Origin: Candidatus Zixiibacteriota bacterium | GTDB taxonomy: Bacteria > Zixibacteria > MSB-5A5 > UBA10806 | NCBI GenBank assembly: GCA_020348065.1 | Contig: CP070742.1 | Span: 2,130,196-2,162,759, forward strand | Reading direction: 5' to 3' | Length of the DNA stretch: 32,564 bases | Shown: positions 6,766 to 32,564 of the stretch, piece by piece | Position numbering within the stretch: position 1 is the first letter of the stretch | How the letters are laid out: every line of letters begins with the position of its first letter | Translations under genes and position numbers: made by a program | Notes under the pieces: model-generated | Seen by the model: the letters and a program-made list of their open reading frames with translations, nothing else | The model's database searches: none | What the model was told of the DNA's origin: nothing

Positions 6766-6786
6766 ATGCCGGATCAAGTCCGGCAT
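6766..6786. repeat. Palindrome ATGCCGGA/TCCGGCAT
   Basis: Arms ATGCCGGA and TCCGGCAT. The same arms occur inside both copies of the 263-bp direct repeat (near 26994 and 28866), so this is a dispersed module. Confidence 0.7.
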
Positions 6787-6799
6787 GACGATAAACTGT

Positions 6800-6866
6800 G
6801 CAGTCGGGTCGCCTGACCCGACTGCGTTAGTTTTACATGAAAGCGTCAGGTGAGGCCACCTGACGC
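6800..6866. repeat. Double-hairpin repeat, copy 1
   Basis: Hairpin 1 (6800-6825) has arms GCAGTCGGGTC / GACCCGACTGC. After a 17-bp AT-rich spacer comes hairpin 2 (6843-6866) with arms GCGTCAGGTG / CACCTGACGC. The same two-module order and near-identical sequence recur at 9965-10032. Confidence 0.8.
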
Positions 6867-6946
6867 CACGGGTAGCTTGACGCCTTAAAGCCGTTAGATA
6901 CGGAGATCTGACGGCACGCGTAATCCTACGATAAGAAACCCCGGTA

Positions 6947-9932: not shown

Positions 9933-9964
9933 TATATCGGACTAACCATAATGCTGGTTAATGT

Positions 9965-10032
9965 GCGGTCGGGTCGCCTGACCCGACCGCTTTAATTTTA
10001 ACACAGAGGCGTCAGGTGAGGCCACCTGCCGC
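9965..10032. repeat. Double-hairpin repeat, copy 2
   Basis: Hairpin 1 (9965-9990) has arms GCGGTCGGGTC / GACCCGACCGC. After an 18-bp spacer comes hairpin 2 (10009-10032) with arms GCGTCAGGTG / CACCTGCCGC (one mismatch). It matches 6800-6866 including part of the AT-rich spacer. Confidence 0.8.
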
Positions 10033-10046
10033 CACCTATTGTGCTC

Positions 10047-21211: not shown

Positions 21212-21230
21212 CTTCTCCAAAATCACTGTG

Positions 21231-21254
21231 CTGCCGGGTGACCCCACCCGGCAG
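21231..21254. repeat. REP family B, 3' boundary of RAYT unit 1
   Basis: Palindrome with arms CTGCCGGGTG / CACCCGGCAG, three bp after the transposase stop codon. The same element sits at the same place in unit 2 (31710-31733). Confidence 0.85.
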
Positions 21255-21257
21255 CTG

Positions 21258-21800
21258 TTAATAAAATTTATCAAAATCAAATAATATCCCTTTCGTGTCA
21301 TCTTGATTCTTCCAGTCTAAAAAACTAGAATATGGCCAATCGTCCGGATTTTCAACCAAATTATCTTTTACAGGATTATAATGTATATAATCTAATTTAA
21401 TCCTGAATTGCTTCTCGGATTTGATGACCAGATCGTCAAAACGTTCTTCCCAAAGGGGGCCTTTATGATTCAGATTAATCCTTACTCTGCCCTTGAGAGA
21501 ATGGATAAATCTCGACATGCCCGGCCCTCCATCCTTACAGCCAGCCAGAAGGTGAATATGGGATGGCATAATAACATAACCGAAAAGAGAAACACTTTTA
21601 TCTTGTACAGTATCGAATAATGTCCTTTCTATGATCCTTAAACATTCTGGATAATGCGGAAAATTTCTTCTATTGCTGGTGGTGGTAGTCAGGAAGAATA
21701 TGGTGGGATCTTTTATTAAATTTCTTTTTCTTAAAGGTAGTGTACATCTACCTTTCGGGTTAATGTTATTGCTGTCGGGTCGGGTGACCCGACAGCACAT
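21258..21800 (-). CDS. REP-associated tyrosine transposase (RAYT), copy 1
   Basis: 180 codons in the open frame; residues 22-180 align with the RAYT at 31695-32219 at about 75% identity. IS200/IS605-type Y1 fold: HIH pair His81/His83 in MPSHIHLLAG, catalytic Tyr138 in LDYIHYNPVK, a signature of the RAYT group. Such enzymes cut REP palindromes in single-stranded form and are usually single-copy domesticated relatives of transposases. The N-terminal 20 residues are read from the family B palindrome. The copy 2 start codon (TTG) corresponds here to CTA (21738-21740), so the true start is unclear and the copy may be weakly expressed or decaying. Confidence 0.88.
   Translation of the reverse strand: MCCRVTRPDSNNINPKGRCTLPLRKRNLIKDPTIFFLTTTTSNRRNFPHYPECLRIIERTLFDTVQDKSVSLFGYVIMPSHIHLLAGCKDGGPGMSRFIHSLKGRVRINLNHKGPLWEERFDDLVIKSEKQFRIKLDYIHYNPVKDNLVENPDDWPYSSFLDWKNQDDTKGILFDFDKFY
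21771..21796. repeat. REP family B, 5' boundary of RAYT unit 1
   Basis: Arms GCTGTCGGGTC / GACCCGACAGC with a short loop, 31 bp before the homologous start position of RAYT 1. Identical core at 32249-32274. Confidence 0.85.
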
Positions 21801-21839
21801 AAATCTCGCGTTTTAGTTTTTGGAGAGGTGTCATAGTTT

Positions 21840-22520: not shown

Positions 22521-22579
22521 TCATGGTCTCCTTTTGTGGTGCGTGTTAGGCGAAGCGACATATTTTAATTCGGTCTTTC

Positions 22580-22626
22580 GTAGGTCGGGTTCCGATCCCG
22601 ACTTTTGGTCGGGAGAGAAACCCGAC
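22580..22626 (+). repeat. REP family A, copy 3 (RAYT 3, 3' side)
   Basis: Starts GTAGGTCGGGTTCCG and ends GAAACCCGAC, with an inner TCCCGACTTTTGGTCGGGA hairpin. It lies 5 bp beyond the stop of the divergent RAYT. Confidence 0.85.
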
Positions 22627-22631
22627 ATCAA

Positions 22632-23111
22632 TCACTCTCCATAATCCCCATCGAATTCGAGTATGTTCTTAATACCCCAATCCCTATTATAGTAACCCTC
22701 TTTATAATAGTCTGTCAATGATGAATGATTATATTCGAAAGGATCCTGCACAATTCCATGTTTTACCGGATTATAATGAATATAATCCAGATGCCGGTTT
22801 AAATCATCCTGATTTCTAATGATATGATCCCAATACCTGTTTTGCCATACTCGGCCTTTTCGATATTTATCACGACAATGCCGAGAATAGGTTATTTTGA
22901 ATTTATGCATTATCTCCGATATAGATATTTTGTCTATTTTTATAATAGAGTGAAAATGATCTGCCAGAATAACCCATGCTTTGGGTAACGGACCGAACCA
23001 AGAATTCCAAAACAATTTCAAATCGTTCAATAAAATATTTTCTCTTTTGTATGTTACAACGGTAATGAAATAATATCTATTGCGTAAATCGAAGCGTCTA
23101 AATGTTTTCAT
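22632..23111 (-). CDS. REP-associated tyrosine transposase (RAYT), divergent type
   Basis: 159 residues. His52-Phe-His54 in ILADHFHSIIK is the HUH-like metal pair. Tyr110 in LDYIHYNPVKHGIV is the expected catalytic tyrosine. CRDKYRKGRVWQNRYWDHII is also typical of RAYTs. It shares only these motifs with the other two copies, so it belongs to another group. It is bounded by inverted family A palindromes at 22580-22626 and 23152-23206, whose GTAGG ends face outward. The frame is intact. It is probably a domesticated single-strand transposase acting on family A repeats. Confidence 0.9.
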   Translation of the reverse strand: MKTFRRFDLRNRYYFITVVTYKRENILLNDLKLFWNSWFGPLPKAWVILADHFHSIIKIDKISISEIMHKFKITYSRHCRDKYRKGRVWQNRYWDHIIRNQDDLNRHLDYIHYNPVKHGIVQDPFEYNHSSLTDYYKEGYYNRDWGIKNILEFDGDYGE

Positions 23112-23151
23112 CTTCTGTTCTTGGGAATTGTCTTCCTGCTTTGGCTTAGGC

Positions 23152-23206
23152 GTCGGGTTTCTCGCTCATCCCGCTTTCAGCGGGAATCGCTCGGAACCCG
23201 ACCTAC
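23152..23206 (-). repeat. REP family A, copy 4 (RAYT 3, 5' side)
   Basis: Reads GTCGGGTTTCTCGC...GGAACCCGACCTAC with an inner TCCCGCTTTCAGCGGGA hairpin. Inverted with respect to copy 3; 40 bp upstream of the RAYT start. Confidence 0.85.
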
Positions 23207-26859: not shown

Positions 26860-27122
26860 CAGTAGGTCGGGTTTGACCCCGCTTTAGCGGGGCCCAAACC
26901 CGACGCAAATAATGTCGTAGGGATACACCCATGTGTGTATCCCTTTTTCGCCCACGGTGGCCACATGATTCCGCCGCTACGACCGTATTTGTATGCCGGA
27001 CTCGATCCGGCATCTATAATGGCCCGCCTCTATAGATTCCTGCTTTCGCAGGAATTACATTGAAAATTTGGTTTTGCAGTCATAGCAAGTTTCCGGATCC
27101 CGCGTAGCGGGGCTATGACTCG
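26860..27122 (+). repeat. 263-bp direct repeat, copy 1
   Basis: Starts with a family A-type palindrome (26862-26904), then CGCAAATAATGTCGTAGGGA, a GGATACACCCATGTGTGTATCC hairpin (written here as GATACACC / TGTGTATC), the ATGCCGGA/TCCGGCAT module and a CCCGCGTAGCGGGG end. It matches 28733-28995 with about four differences by eye. Confidence 0.9.
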
Positions 27123-27319
27123 CGGGATAAAATCGTTCCTTCAGATCGTAGCCCTGCCAGTGGCGGGGCGTGATCTGACGGTAATAGAGCTAAGCGGCAG
27201 GTCACGTCCCGATTGAAAAGCCGGGACTACGACCCGCCGCAATAATAAAATTATAAGACAAATAATAATCTGACCTTTATATAAAATCATATTTTTTCTT
27301 GTATAACCAAATCATATTT

Positions 27320-27346
27320 CGTAATATTGAACGAATCGATATTACG
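27320..27346 (+). promoter_or_regulatory. Inverted repeat abutting the ribosome site of the LVIVD gene
   Basis: Arms CGTAATAT / ATATTACG with an 11-bp loop; the right arm touches GGGAGG, the ribosome site 8 bp before ATG 27359. It could be an operator or an RNA hairpin that limits translation. Confidence 0.45.
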
Positions 27347-27358
27347 GGAGGATAGAAA

Positions 27359-28321
27359 ATGAAAACAGAATATTTTCGGCCGTTATGTTATCCAGCAGTA
27401 TTTTTGTTAAGCGCTATATTATTGAACTGCGACAAAGATAAATCCATTGATCCGAACCTTCCCTCGGGTGTTCACTTAATGGCATCCCTCAATATTCAAT
27501 ACACAAATTCAGTTTCTGTGTACGGCGACTACGCATATGTAGTGGGAGAGCCCGGGTTGCTCGTGATCGATATCTCCGATCCCAGCAATCCCGACATCGT
27601 GGGGAGTTGTGATACGGTGGGAACGGATGGGACTATTTTCGTGGATGGCAGCTATGCGTACATGAGTGCCGGCGCTATTGTCAATATCGAAAACCCGGCC
27701 GAACCATTTTTGATCGGGAGATTCCCCGACCTTTTGGTCCCGACCGGCCTCTTTATCGACGGCGATTACGCCTATTTTTCGTCAAGTACCATGGCCTTAA
27801 CGATATTTGATATAGCCGATCGGGCCGATCCTGTTTTAGTCAAAGAGTATAACCCCACCGGAAGCACCTCCGGAATCTGGATAGAAGGTAACTACGCCTT
27901 CCTGGCGTACGGGGATCATATTCGAATCATCGGCATAATAGATGTGCTCCGCCCGGTTCATATTAAAAGCGCCTTTGTGCCCGGCCCGGCGGTCGAAGTG
28001 TGCGTACGTAATGATATCGCCTATGTCACGGGTGATACTTCCGGGCTGTTTTTGATCGATATCGATCCCTTAAATAACGCCACTTGGGTCGGAACTTACG
28101 ATACGCCCGGAGCAGCCTTCTGGGTCTGCTCGGACGGGAATTACGCCTATGTTGCCGACAGGGAGTCGGGGCTACAGATAATCGACTGCCACGATCCCGC
28201 CAACCCTGTTTTCGCGGCAAGTTATGAAACCTCGGGGCCGGCGAATTGCGTTTTTGTCTACAGAGGGTATATCTATCTGACTGACATGGAAAAACTCTAT
28301 ATTCTGAAGTTCGTGCCGTGA
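27359..28321 (+). CDS. LVIVD-repeat beta-propeller lipoprotein
   Basis: 320 residues. Signal peptide with lipobox LLNC (Cys about 24). At least six repeats of about 42 residues follow, with the pattern V-x-G-D/N-Y-A-Y-V...G-L-x-I-I/V-D-I-S-D-P-x-x-P: YGDYAYVVGEPGLLVIDISD, DGNYAYVADRESGLQIIDCH and others. This LVIVD fold is a beta-propeller found at the surface of many FCB bacteria. The role is binding or scaffolding, not a known enzyme. GGGAGG precedes the start. The gene lies exactly between the two 263-bp direct repeats. Confidence 0.9.
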   Translation: MKTEYFRPLCYPAVFLLSAILLNCDKDKSIDPNLPSGVHLMASLNIQYTNSVSVYGDYAYVVGEPGLLVIDISDPSNPDIVGSCDTVGTDGTIFVDGSYAYMSAGAIVNIENPAEPFLIGRFPDLLVPTGLFIDGDYAYFSSSTMALTIFDIADRADPVLVKEYNPTGSTSGIWIEGNYAFLAYGDHIRIIGIIDVLRPVHIKSAFVPGPAVEVCVRNDIAYVTGDTSGLFLIDIDPLNNATWVGTYDTPGAAFWVCSDGNYAYVADRESGLQIIDCHDPANPVFAASYETSGPANCVFVYRGYIYLTDMEKLYILKFVP

Positions 28322-28328
28322 TTCAGCT

Positions 28329-28363
28329 GTAGGTCGGGTTCCGAACGAAGTGAGAAACCCGAC
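28329..28363 (+). repeat. REP family A, copy 5
   Basis: 35 bp, starting 8 bp after the LVIVD stop. Same inner sequence as the copy at 2002-2036 apart from two substitutions. Confidence 0.85.
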
Positions 28364-28377
28364 GACTATTCTATAAT

Positions 28378-28686
28378 CTATTCCTCAAATTCGCTTGGGA
28401 TCCAATGATCATCGGGATATGGTAATCTCCCATTTATATCCCGTAGGAATTCAAGGTATTTTCTAAGACTCGTATAAAATTCTTCGAATGATCCGATTTC
28501 TCTATGTTTAAATGCGTGTATAGCATTTCTTCTTTGCTGAATATGGAAAATCCATTCATCCCAATCCCAAAATTCATCCCAAATTCTATTCTTAAAAAAT
28601 TGCCGGAGTAATTCTAAGCATAAGCTACCCGGTTCAACGACCTTTTCTTTCCGCTTAATCGCTTCGATATCTTCGGCATTGCTGTT
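28378..28686 (-). pseudogene. C-terminal remnant of an unknown protein
   Basis: An uninterrupted 103-codon frame ends with TAG at 28380-28378 and is bounded upstream by an in-frame TAG at 28689-28687. It contains no ATG, GTG or TTG codon, so no start can be given. The peptide is clearly protein-like: LCLELLRQFFKNRIWDEFWD, WDEWIFHIQQRRNAIHAFKH, FYTSLRKYLEFLRDINGRLP, ending PYPDDHWIPSEFEE. It is rich in Trp and aromatic residues, like a helical domain of unknown family. The 5' part appears lost at or near the 263-bp repeat, which starts 47 bp upstream. Confidence 0.7.
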
Positions 28687-28732
28687 CTAGCGGGTAAAGC
28701 GTGTCGTCACGTCAACCCGACCTGACGACCAA

Positions 28733-28995
28733 CAGTAGGTCGGGTTTGACCCCGCTTTAGCGGGGCCCAAACCCGACGCAAATAATGTCGTAGGAATACA
28801 CCCATGTGTGTATCCCTTTTTCGCCCACGGTGGCCACATGGTTCCGCCGCTACGACCGTATTTGTATGCCGGACTCGATCCGGCATCTATAATGGCCCGC
28901 CTCTATAGATTCCTGCTTTCGCAGGAATGACATTGAAAATTTGGTTTTGCAGTCATAGCAAATTTCCGGATCCCGCGTAGCGGGGCTATGACTCG
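28733..28995 (+). repeat. 263-bp direct repeat, copy 2
   Basis: Same order and length as 26860-27122. Visible differences are single-base: GGAATAC for GGGATAC, GGTTCC for GATTCC, AATGACATT for AATTACATT and CAAATTT for CAAGTTT. The family A core is at 28735-28777. Confidence 0.9.
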
Positions 28996-29043
28996 TAGAA
29001 TAAAGATCGGGGTTAGATAGAATCGAGAAACCTGACGCTCATC

Positions 29044-30197: not shown

Positions 30198-30385
30198 TTT
30201 AAACACACCCGGCAGCACAATGATGAAATTAAAGCAATTTATTTAGTTATATTATTATAGATCCTAGCGCAAGCCCAAAAATCTCGTGCCCCACTAAAAC
30301 CCCTTATCACTGCGCTACTTTGCCCGTCAGTATTCCGGGCAGGTCGGGCGACTTGAACCGGGGCAACGAAAATATAAATATCAGA

Positions 30386-30790
30386 TCATTTATTTCCCTG
30401 AGTAGCGACAAGGATCGTTACTATAATAGCCGTACCGATCACACCGCCGATCAGCGATTTTTGCAGCCGGGTGCTCTTTATTTTTTTGGAATAACCTTTA
30501 TAGAATCCGAGCCTGTAATCAGGCTGCCCGGAAAGGAAGCCTGACTCATAACCGATCGGCTCTGTCGATCCTACCTGGCTTAATCCTACAACAACGCCGG
30601 TACCGATAAGGCCCAATAATAATCCTCCTGCCAGACCGGCTCCAAACCAACCGTCACCTTTATATTCCTCACCGGCCGCAACCTTACCATCGAGATAGCC
30701 GTTATCATACTCCGGGCTTTTCACCTTGTCCCCGGCGAACAGATTGGAGCTAAACGCCAGAATCGTGAGCATACAGATAATTTTTTTCAA
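30386..30790 (-). CDS. Small exported membrane protein with GYxxG motifs
   Basis: 134 residues from TTG 30790, supported by GGGAGG. A signal peptide (1-20, ending LFAG) is followed by YDNGYLDGKVAA, a glycine-rich hydrophobic helix (AGLAGGLLLGLIGTGVVVGL), a second GYESGFLSGQ...YRLGFYKGYSKK segment and a C-terminal helix (LIGGVIGTAIIVTILVA). GYxxG plus glycine-zipper helices recur in small uncharacterised envelope proteins of the FCB group. The function is unknown. It is a single gene, with 221 bp of plain sequence upstream in which I see nothing. Confidence 0.75.
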   Translation of the reverse strand: MKKIICMLTILAFSSNLFAGDKVKSPEYDNGYLDGKVAAGEEYKGDGWFGAGLAGGLLLGLIGTGVVVGLSQVGSTEPIGYESGFLSGQPDYRLGFYKGYSKKIKSTRLQKSLIGGVIGTAIIVTILVATQGNK

Positions 30791-31011
30791 TATAACCTCC
30801 CGCTAAAACCGATTAAACGAGCTCATAACGTCTCTCTATTCCCAAAAGAAAATCCGCACATTTAAACGTAAGAAATTTAATCCATTTTACCAAGCAGGGC
30901 AAGGCCTATTTGGATCATTTTTATAGAAACTGCAATCAGGTAATTAACCCCATCGGGCCTCTACTCTAAGACGTCAGGAGTTTCCACAACCCCGATATAT
31001 CAGACAATACC

Positions 31012-31650
31012 CTACAGCCCCAGTTCCTCGCCGACGATTATCACGGTTATGACCGGCCGGTATTTGTCGTTGTCGTATTGCCTTTCAATTATAACGGTCT
31101 TATTGCAGATTCGCCAGGGCGACGTGCAGTCGTCGCATACGCCGGTTTCGCCGCATTGCGGCGCGGGATCGAATTCCGGATGGCGTTTCACATTGAGCGG
31201 GGCCGCCGTCTCCCTGATCCTGTCCAGCGCCTCCTCGACATTCTTTACAATCTTGTTTATTCCCACCACGATGATAACCTTTTTGGGGCCGAAGAGCATG
31301 GCCGCCACCCGGTTGCCGAGCGCGTCAACGTTTACGATTTTGCCATCCATCGTTATGGCGTTTGTGCCGGTCACGAATACGTCGGAGGTCAGAGCCTTCC
31401 TCTTGAGTTCGATGTTCTTTTCGAAACTGATCCCGGGTTTCCAGGGATTCAGGAATGTGTAGTTGCCGGTTTCCAGCGCGTCGATCACGCCTATTTGTCT
31501 TAACGTAAGCGAGTCGCCAAACCCCACCACTCTGCCCTCGGGTATCATAGACATAACCTTCGCCAGGGCCTGCTTCCCGTTATCAACATAAAAGGCCGGG
31601 ATGTTATTTCCGGCCAGCCTCTCAATTAAGGTCTTGATATTATGTTTCAT
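31012..31650 (-). CDS. LUD domain protein (lactate utilisation, LutC-like)
   Basis: 212 residues. GFGDSLTLRQIG (43-54) is the LUD/DUF162 phosphate-binding-like loop. TGTNAITMDGKIVNVDALGN and GPKKVIIVVGINKIV are conserved in this family. Cys166, 172, 175 and 182 near the end (QCGETGVCDDC...ICN) could hold an iron-sulphur or zinc site. Characterised relatives (LutB/LutC) act in lactate oxidation, but no lutA or lutB is adjacent, so the role here is open. The start at ATG 31650 has no strong ribosome site. Confidence 0.88.
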   Translation of the reverse strand: MKHNIKTLIERLAGNNIPAFYVDNGKQALAKVMSMIPEGRVVGFGDSLTLRQIGVIDALETGNYTFLNPWKPGISFEKNIELKRKALTSDVFVTGTNAITMDGKIVNVDALGNRVAAMLFGPKKVIIVVGINKIVKNVEEALDRIRETAAPLNVKRHPEFDPAPQCGETGVCDDCTSPWRICNKTVIIERQYDNDKYRPVITVIIVGEELGL

Positions 31651-31664
31651 TGCTTATGATTTTT

Positions 31665-31690
31665 GCTGTCGGGTCGGGTGACCGGACAAC
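31665..31690. repeat. REP family B, extra copy beyond unit 2
   Basis: GCTGTCGGGTCGGGTGACC then GGACAAC: the left arm as in the 5' boundary element, right arm damaged. It lies 5 bp before the RAYT 2 stop codon. Confidence 0.75.
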
Positions 31691-31694
31691 AAGG

Positions 31695-32219
31695 TTACAA
31701 TTCACTGTGCTGCCGGGTGACCTCACCCGGCAGCTCTCCGAAAAAACCGTCAATTTCAAACAAAATCCCCTTTCCCCTTGCATGATTTTGCCAATCAGAG
31801 AAGCTGGAATATGACCAATCAGCCGCATTTTCAACCAAACCATCCTTTACAGGATTATTATGAATATAATCTAATTTAATTCTGAATTGCTTTTCGGATT
31901 TTATGACCAGATCGTCAAAGCGCTCCTGCCAGAGACTGCCTTTATGTTTCAAATTAATCCTTACCCTGCCTTTAAAAGAGTGCATAAATCTTGAGATACC
32001 AGGGCCCCCATCTCCAGAACCGGCCCGTAGATGAATATGAGACGGCATTATGACGTATCCGAAAATTGAAATGCCCTTATCCCGGGTAGTATCAAACATA
32101 GTTTTTTCGATTATTCTTAAGCTTTCAGGAAAATTCGGGAATTGCCCTCTATTGCCGGTGGTGGTGGTCAGGAAGAAAATGGAAGGATCGTTAATTAAAT
32201 TTCTTTTTCTTAAAGGCAA
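31695..32219 (-). CDS. REP-associated tyrosine transposase (RAYT), copy 2
   Basis: 174 residues from TTG 32219. His61/His63 in MPSHIHLRAG, catalytic Tyr118 in LDYIHNNPVK. About 75% identical to RAYT 1 over residues 2-160. The last 14 residues (GELPGEVTRQHSEL) have no counterpart in RAYT 1: the RAYT 1 stop TAA aligns with GGA here, and translation runs on through the family B palindrome at 31710-31733. The frame is otherwise intact. Unit length from palindrome to palindrome is 565 bp, against 566 bp for copy 1. Confidence 0.9.
   Translation of the reverse strand: MPLRKRNLINDPSIFFLTTTTGNRGQFPNFPESLRIIEKTMFDTTRDKGISIFGYVIMPSHIHLRAGSGDGGPGISRFMHSFKGRVRINLKHKGSLWQERFDDLVIKSEKQFRIKLDYIHNNPVKDGLVENAADWSYSSFSDWQNHARGKGILFEIDGFFGELPGEVTRQHSEL
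31710..31733. repeat. REP family B, 3' boundary of RAYT unit 2
   Basis: Arms CTGCCGGGTGA / TCACCCGGCAG. It lies inside the extended reading frame of RAYT 2. Confidence 0.85.
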
Positions 32220-32248
32220 AGCAAGACTGCCTTTCGTTTTATATTATT

Positions 32249-32274
32249 GCTGTCGGGTCGGGTGACCCGACAGC
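32249..32274. repeat. REP family B, 5' boundary of RAYT unit 2
   Basis: Same 26-bp palindrome as at 21771-21796, 30 bp before the start of RAYT 2. The flanking CACAT is shared as well. Confidence 0.85.
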
Positions 32275-32307
32275 ACATCTTGATCCGTTTATTGCAGCCT
32301 GAATCTC

Positions 32308-32564
32308 CTACTCCGGCACATCCCCCACCAGCCTGTCCACCACATCCAGCGTGCCCACACCGTCGGCCTCCGCTGAGAAGGAGGTCACGATGCGGTGGCG
32401 CATCACCGGACGGGCCACCAGGCGGATATCGTCGGTGGACGGTGTCGGCCTGCCGTGCAGGATAGCGCGGGTCTTGGCCCCCAGCACCATGTACTGCGAC
32501 GCCCTCGGCCCGGCGCCCCAGCTTACCCAGTTCTTGATATAATCGGGCGAGCCCTCCACCGGAC
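32308..32564 (-). CDS. MoxR-family AAA ATPase, C-terminal part (partial)
   Basis: The frame enters from the right edge and stops at 32308. The peptide includes SWGAGPRASQYMVLGAKTRA, GRPTPSTDDIRLVARPVMRH and RIVTSFSAEADGV, the conserved sensor 2/lid region of MoxR ATPases (usually R-A-S-x-x-L...A-x-L-x-G-R...V-x-P-x-D-V...L-R-H-R). The nucleotide-binding part is outside the window. MoxR proteins act as chaperones for metal or cofactor insertion, often beside DUF58 and von Willebrand A genes. The final 10 residues (DRLVGDVPE) are normal for the family. Confidence 0.9.
   Translation of the reverse strand, partial: PVEGSPDYIKNWVSWGAGPRASQYMVLGAKTRAILHGRPTPSTDDIRLVARPVMRHRIVTSFSAEADGVGTLDVVDRLVGDVPE

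What the first reader, a model, noticed from the sequence alone, without database searches (positions are those of the whole stretch)
26860..28995. Near-identical 263-bp composite repeats frame the LVIVD lipoprotein gene
26860-27122 and 28733-28995 are in direct orientation and differ at about four positions. Each is built from several palindromic modules seen singly elsewhere (family A at the start, ATGCCGGA/TCCGGCAT as at 6766). They bracket 1.6 kb with one intact gene and one remnant. This could be a composite mobile cassette, or a duplication that allows loss of the gene by recombination.
Basis: partly seen in the sequence, partly recalled or inferred. Interest (0 to 1): 0.58.

Follow-up and report, generated by a model that had tools for sequence, protein, structure and literature searches.

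The report
Duplicated cluster of ordinary REP repeats
Two nearly identical blocks of common bacterial hairpin repeats sit on either side of a resident gene; a sister species has the same gene in the same place, so the gene is not a mobile cargo and the find is largely ordinary.

Summary
26860-27122 and 28733-28995 are direct repeats with 4 differences in 263 bp. The whole block occurs only twice in the 3.74-Mb genome, and at full length in none of the other genomes of a 146-genome search. It is a mosaic of hairpin modules. Module A is a GTAG-headed REP with 61 copies in the genome and none for the reversed pattern. A REP-associated tyrosine transposase (RAYT) gene in the window, 22632-23111, is flanked by inverted A copies.

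The cassette reading fails. The congener G001 (apparently CP070813.1, Candidatus Zixiibacteriota) has the LVIVD gene at the same place beside LonB, with one E module 3' of it where copy 2 lies. Copy 1 fills the LonB-LVIVD interval, where G001 has a cytochrome gene that G000 lacks. So a REP cluster was copied about 1.9 kb from the 3' to the 5' side of a resident gene. Short-range copying of REPs recurs in this genome: 4 identical same-orientation pairs within 5 kb against 0.16 expected. Loss of LVIVD by recombination between the copies is possible but unobserved.

The parts
26860..27131 (+). Composite REP cluster, copy 1 (high-identity core 26860-27122); in the divergent LonB/LVIVD intergenic region; the derived copy
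   Evidence: in G001 the interval holds a cytochrome gene instead
28733..29004 (+). Composite REP cluster, copy 2 (core 28733-28995); 3' of LVIVD, at the site where the congener also has a REP cluster
   Evidence: L055 13229-13288 matches window 28945-29004 at 90%, colinear with LVIVD
26862..26904 (+). Module A (copy 1): GTAG-headed REP hairpin; copy 2 at 28735-28777
   Evidence: 61 copies of the stem pattern in G000, 27 in G001, 0 for the reversed pattern
26906..26991 (+). Module B (copy 1): hairpin nested in outer arms GTCGTAG/CTACGAC; copy 2 at 28779-28864; no match elsewhere in the genome
26990..27062 (+). Modules C and D (copy 1): doublet of hairpins ATGCCGGACTCGATCCGGCAT and ATTCCTGCTTTCGCAGGAAT; copy 2 at 28863-28935
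   Evidence: 11 further C or C-D matches in G000
27073..27131 (+). Module E (copy 1): bulged hairpin GTCATAGC...GGATCCCGCGTAGCGGGGCTATGAC; copy 2 at 28946-29004
   Evidence: 6 further E matches in G000; rare exact variant shared with the G001 locus
27359..28321 (+). LVIVD-repeat protein gene, probable lipoprotein, resident (not cargo)
   Evidence: colinear orthologue in G001, 86% aa, 88% nt identity
28378..28686 (-). 102-residue open frame, possible gene remnant, unique to this genome among the two congeners
28329..28363 (+). Single family-A REP just after the LVIVD stop codon
24293..26740 (-). LonB-like protease gene, left anchor of the synteny
22632..23111 (-). RAYT (TnpA-REP) gene carrying HFH and tyrosine motifs; candidate mobiliser of family A
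   Evidence: (NF047646, 108.5 bits, cut-off 80)
22580..22626 (+). Family-A REP on one side of this RAYT gene (GTAG head outward)
23152..23206 (-). Family-A REP on the other side of this RAYT gene, inverted (GTAG head outward)

Best explanation
The two 263-bp blocks are copies of a BIME-like cluster of REP hairpins in a Zixiibacteriota genome that has several RAYT genes. The cluster formed 3' of the resident LVIVD gene: an A-like plus E pair is already there in the congener, and B, C and D are seen there only in this lineage. One copy was then placed about 1.9 kb upstream, in the LonB-LVIVD interval where the congener has a cytochrome gene. The copying was recent relative to the species split. 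The route, RAYT-assisted single-strand copying or template switching between hairpins, is inferred. LVIVD and the small open frame are bystanders. Homologous recombination between the copies could in principle delete them; that too is inferred.
For: Full block found only twice, modules dispersed. Copies differ at 4 of 263 positions, while the two congeners differ by 15-17% in neighbouring aligned DNA such as 22577-23206 and LonB. LVIVD is colinear with LonB in G001. Of two exact E matches in G001, one is 3' of LVIVD at copy 2's place, with an A-like foot 72 bp before the E match. The G001 cytochrome protein has no match in G000. RAYT genes: 8 Y1_Tnp matches in G000, 7 over the cut-off; 5 of 5 proteins tested pass NCBIfam's RAYT cut-off. 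Inverted A REPs flank the RAYT at 22632-23111. Direct short-range duplication of REP units recurs: L080 1861-1961 and 3185-3285 at 98%, window 6797-6869 and 9962-10035 at 86%, and 4 identical pairs within 5 kb against 0.16 expected.
Against: Only one congener is available, so the cytochrome gene could be a gain in G001 rather than a loss in G000. Module B occurs only in these two blocks, so 'several common modules' holds for A, C-D and E but not B. Each copy carries apparently derived changes, so substitutions do not say which copy is older. No evidence ties RAYT activity to this particular event. The right edge of the block is diffuse: three substitutions in four bases, then ATAAA shared.
Confidence: 0.85

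Rival explanations
1. Composite mobile cassette: the two blocks act together as ends and carry LVIVD between genomes or sites.
For: Two near-identical direct repeats around a gene; no full block in the congener. The LVIVD interior has unusually low synonymous divergence between the species (codons 80-240 pS 0.15; LonB windows of the same size 0.309-0.666), which could mean exchange of the gene.
Against: Gene and neighbourhood are colinear in G001, which has a single A-like/E cluster there. No third full copy. No transposase inside the interval. No target duplication visible in the flanks printed. The low-divergence patch lies within the gene and does not reach the repeats.
Confidence: 0.04
2. 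Remnant of a larger tandem duplication (LVIVD plus block), most of which was later deleted.
For: Direct orientation and short distance (1.87 kb start to start); tandem duplications are common in bacteria (recalled).
Against: Sequence just outside both ends is unrelated, and the interval upstream of LVIVD bears no second LVIVD or cytochrome fragment in the G001 comparison. It needs at least two precise deletions ending at module edges.
Confidence: 0.1
3. A functional pair, kept by selection, acting as transcript-end or regulatory hairpins for LonB and LVIVD.
For: Strong folding; REPs are reported as mostly lying 3' of genes and plausibly transcribed (PMC3733652, abstract).
Against: No terminator-like site is predicted in either block, and the sites found in the region do not exceed shuffles. 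No Rfam match above its gathering score. Copy 1 lies in a divergent promoter region, not at a gene end. Full block not conserved in G001.
Confidence: 0.08
4. Assembly artefact.
For: The genome is a single-contig assembly of unknown provenance here.
Against: The copies differ at 4 to 7 sites and have distinct unique flanks; the LonB-LVIVD-REP order is supported by a separate congener assembly.
Confidence: 0.02

Closest known systems
REP / BIME (GTAG-class repetitive extragenic palindromes, clustered)
   Same: GTAG head, imperfect palindrome, extragenic in the window, dispersed, arranged in clusters of several hairpins, cognate RAYT gene flanked by inverted copies (PMC2817692 passages; PMC3733652 abstract and one section).
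   Different: The cluster mixes hairpins of different families (A, B, C, D, E) rather than alternating units of one REP; copy number (61 for the strict A stem) is lower than the >100 given as usual in the PMC2817692 abstract.
REPIN
   Same: Short non-autonomous hairpin units tied to RAYT genes.
   Different: A REPIN is two inverted REPs of one family (recalled); this block starts with A and ends with E, not an inverted pair.
Composite transposon / MITE-flanked cassette
   Same: Gene between two direct repeats.
   Different: No transposase in the ends or interval, gene present at the same site in the congener, no target duplication seen.

Membership tests
REP/BIME (GTAG class) | Tetranucleotide GTAG/GTGG head 5' of an imperfect palindrome | tested here: met
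   Module A, GTAGGTCGGGTTT...AAACCCGAC. Not shown for modules B-E.
REP/BIME (GTAG class) | Many dispersed extragenic copies | tested here: met
   61 copies of A in G000 and 27 in G001, 0 and 0 for the reversed pattern. Extragenic position looked at only for copies in the window.
REP/BIME (GTAG class) | Cognate RAYT gene flanked by inverted copies | tested here: met
   Window 22632-23111, NF047646 108.5 bits, A copies at 22580 (+) and 23206 (-) with heads outward.
REP/BIME (GTAG class) | Experimental cleavage or mobilisation of the REP by its RAYT | not testable with these tools
   Needs purified protein and single-stranded DNA.
Composite transposon / mobile cassette | Cargo absent from the orthologous site of relatives | tested here: not met
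   LVIVD is present at the same place in the only congener.
Composite transposon / mobile cassette | Transposase or integrase in the ends or the interval | tested here: not met
   Only LVIVD and a 102-residue frame without family lie between.
MITE | Terminal inverted repeats and target-site duplication | tested here: not met
   Block ends are not inverted copies of each other and the flanks printed share no short duplication (read by eye).
Integron cassette (attC-flanked gene) | attC cores and an integron integrase | not tested
   No integrase search was made; synteny with G001 makes it unlikely.

The most novel reading that the evidence does not exclude
RAYT activity in these bacteria copies REPs mainly over short distances and can take along a whole mixed block that starts at a GTAG foot (the shared left edge is CA followed by GTAG). 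Resident genes then become bracketed by long direct repeats and so become deletable. The block at 26860 would be a fresh product of such local copying.
Probability: 0.2. Interest if true: 0.42.

Novelty: new member of a known kind. Interest (0 to 1): 0.2.

Why it matters
It places a REP/RAYT system in Zixiibacteriota, and a congener comparison shows a multi-family REP cluster duplicated beside a resident gene and lying where synteny with the congener ends. It also shows how bracketing repeats can look like a cassette when the gene is resident. If local copying by RAYT were proven, it would help explain how BIMEs grow.

Tried and rejected
Mobile cassette: rejected on synteny with G001. Known structured RNA: one sub-threshold RsmY match, 16.1 bits against a gathering score of 57, E 0.56, taken as chance. 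Intrinsic terminators in the block: none. Exact-module BLAST in a 400-kb sample gave few hits (0 A, 0 B, 0 C, 0 D, 1 C-D, 2 E), because loops vary; the stem pattern gave the census instead. Trinucleotides before the TAGG of A copies, as a trace of a RAYT cleavage site: mixed, with CAG at 2 (the two blocks themselves), CTG at 1, AAG at 3 and others among 15, so no support. Outgroup polarity of the cytochrome gene: a homologue was found in 3 of 58 genomes, none of them G011 or G020, whose LonB is closest after G001, so unresolved. LVIVD relatives in 35 of 58 genomes are mostly larger paralogues and gave no further orthologous locus. The 'remnant' gave only a weak Pfam match (E 0.061, below cut-off). 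Literature: searches for Zixibacteria with palindromic repeats (3 papers listed, not opened), Zixibacteria with REP-associated tyrosine transposase (0 papers), RAYT with local duplication (4 irrelevant hits), BIME with deletion and recombination (2 papers, not opened).

Full report
Check of the observation. 26860-27122 and 28733-28995 are in direct orientation and differ at 4 of 263 positions; extended to 272 bp they differ at 7. Identity drops to 20% or less in the first 20 bp beyond both ends. A BLAST of the block against the whole genome (3,744,738 bases, one contig) found two full copies and 17 partial matches, 11 to the C or C-D part and 6 to E (split counted by me from that table). In a 146-genome search, 31 genomes including G000 gave any match, and only G000 gave a full-length one (at most 5 candidates per genome were scored there).

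What the block is. It is a row of hairpins. A has a GTAG head and a long stem. B is a hairpin nested in outer arms. C and D form a doublet. E is a bulged stem. As single-stranded DNA it folds far better than shuffles (z -7.8, 0 of 200). The stem pattern of A occurs 61 times in G000 and 27 times in the congener G001, with no match to the reversed pattern in either. The window holds three RAYT genes (21258-21800, 22632-23111, 31695-32219). All three, and two others tested from elsewhere in the genome, pass NCBIfam's cut-off for REP-associated tyrosine transposase (5 of 5). Two of the three fall short of Pfam's own Y1_Tnp cut-off. The gene at 22632-23111 is flanked by two A copies in inverted orientation with their GTAG heads outward, which the passages of PMC2817692 I saw describe as the usual arrangement. 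E-type modules lie near two other RAYT genes: matches at 248500 and 2837750 beside Y1_Tnp matches at 248865 and 2836886. B gave no match outside these two blocks.

Comparison with a relative. G001 is the only other genome of the genus in the held set. By coordinates it appears to be CP070813.1, Candidatus Zixiibacteriota bacterium isolate bin119; the lengths given differ by 100 bases. Its locus reads LonB, a cytochrome c'-like gene (285 aa, PF01322), LVIVD, then an A-like foot and an E module. Homology with the window runs through LonB to 26834, breaks, and resumes at 27258 through LVIVD to 28302; the E module of G001 then matches 28945-29004 at 90%. E also matches copy 1 equally well, but its place in G001 is 3' of LVIVD, that of copy 2. 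Exact E-core matches are rare: 2 in G001 and 2 in G000, or 4 and 7 when up to 3 mismatches are allowed. Chance co-location is therefore unlikely. The cytochrome protein has no match in G000. So LVIVD is resident, copy 2 lies at the older site and copy 1 is the newcomer. Whether G000 lost the cytochrome gene or G001 gained it is not settled.

Synteny ends at the cluster. DNA right of it in the window (30380-32564) has in G001 only short matches to repeats and one diverged stretch of about 400 bp at 65% over the RAYT gene. Part of G001's own right flank matches G000 at 1.09 Mb instead. The cluster thus lies where synteny with G001 ends; whether it caused the rearrangement is unknown.

Short-range copying. 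Among the 61 A copies, 4 pairs within 5 kb are identical and in the same orientation; shuffling sequences among places gives 0.16 on average and never 4 in 5000. Eight of the 61 lie in this window against 0.53 expected; random placement gives 8 or more in some 32.5-kb stretch in 1 of 5000 trials. One of the four pairs is the block studied here, so that count is not independent of the finding. Two further direct duplications of two-module REP units were seen, at L080 1861-1961/3185-3285 (98%) and window 6797-6869/9962-10035 (86%). L080 was fetched because of its E matches and the window was given, so these are not a random sample. The 400-kb sample itself gave three short-range duplications; two read like coding sequence by eye and one is inverted, and none was identified as a REP block.

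Mechanism. Shown: the duplication, its direction by synteny, and the REP identity of module A. Inferred: that a RAYT or replication template switching made the copy, and that recombination between the blocks could remove LVIVD. RAYTs from other bacteria cleave single-stranded REPs at CT or CA next to a GTAG-headed hairpin (PMC8266576, passages seen). The shared left edge of the block is CA followed by GTAG, which fits but is weak evidence, since bases before other A copies vary.

Verdict. An ordinary REP/BIME-type cluster, duplicated once beside a resident gene. The cassette reading is not supported.

Noticed in passing
window 27599-28078 versus L055 12394-12873: The middle of the LVIVD gene (codons 80-240) has synonymous difference 0.15 between the two species, below every LonB window of equal size (0.309-0.666). 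This hints at exchange between lineages or strong codon constraint.
   Followed up: partly
window 21222-21802: A RAYT gene with its hairpins is absent from the same place in G001, where a single 74-bp stretch matches both sides of it; the two flanks in the window are 74% alike. Either an insertion with a long flank duplication, or a loss in G001.
   Followed up: partly
window 2001-30199: Eight family-A REPs lie in this window against 0.53 expected, around their RAYT gene at 22632-23111.
   Followed up: partly
L055 11111-11968: Cytochrome c'-like gene between LonB and LVIVD in G001, absent from G000.
   Followed up: partly
window 6797-6869 and 9962-10035: Another direct pair of two-hairpin units, 86% identical, about 3.1 kb apart.
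   Followed up: no
L080 1861-1961 and 3185-3285: A two-module REP unit duplicated in direct orientation, 98% identical, 1.2 kb apart.
   Followed up: partly
window 32118-32564: The end of the window has a 91% identical copy at G000:C1:1493883-1494328 on the other strand.
   Followed up: no
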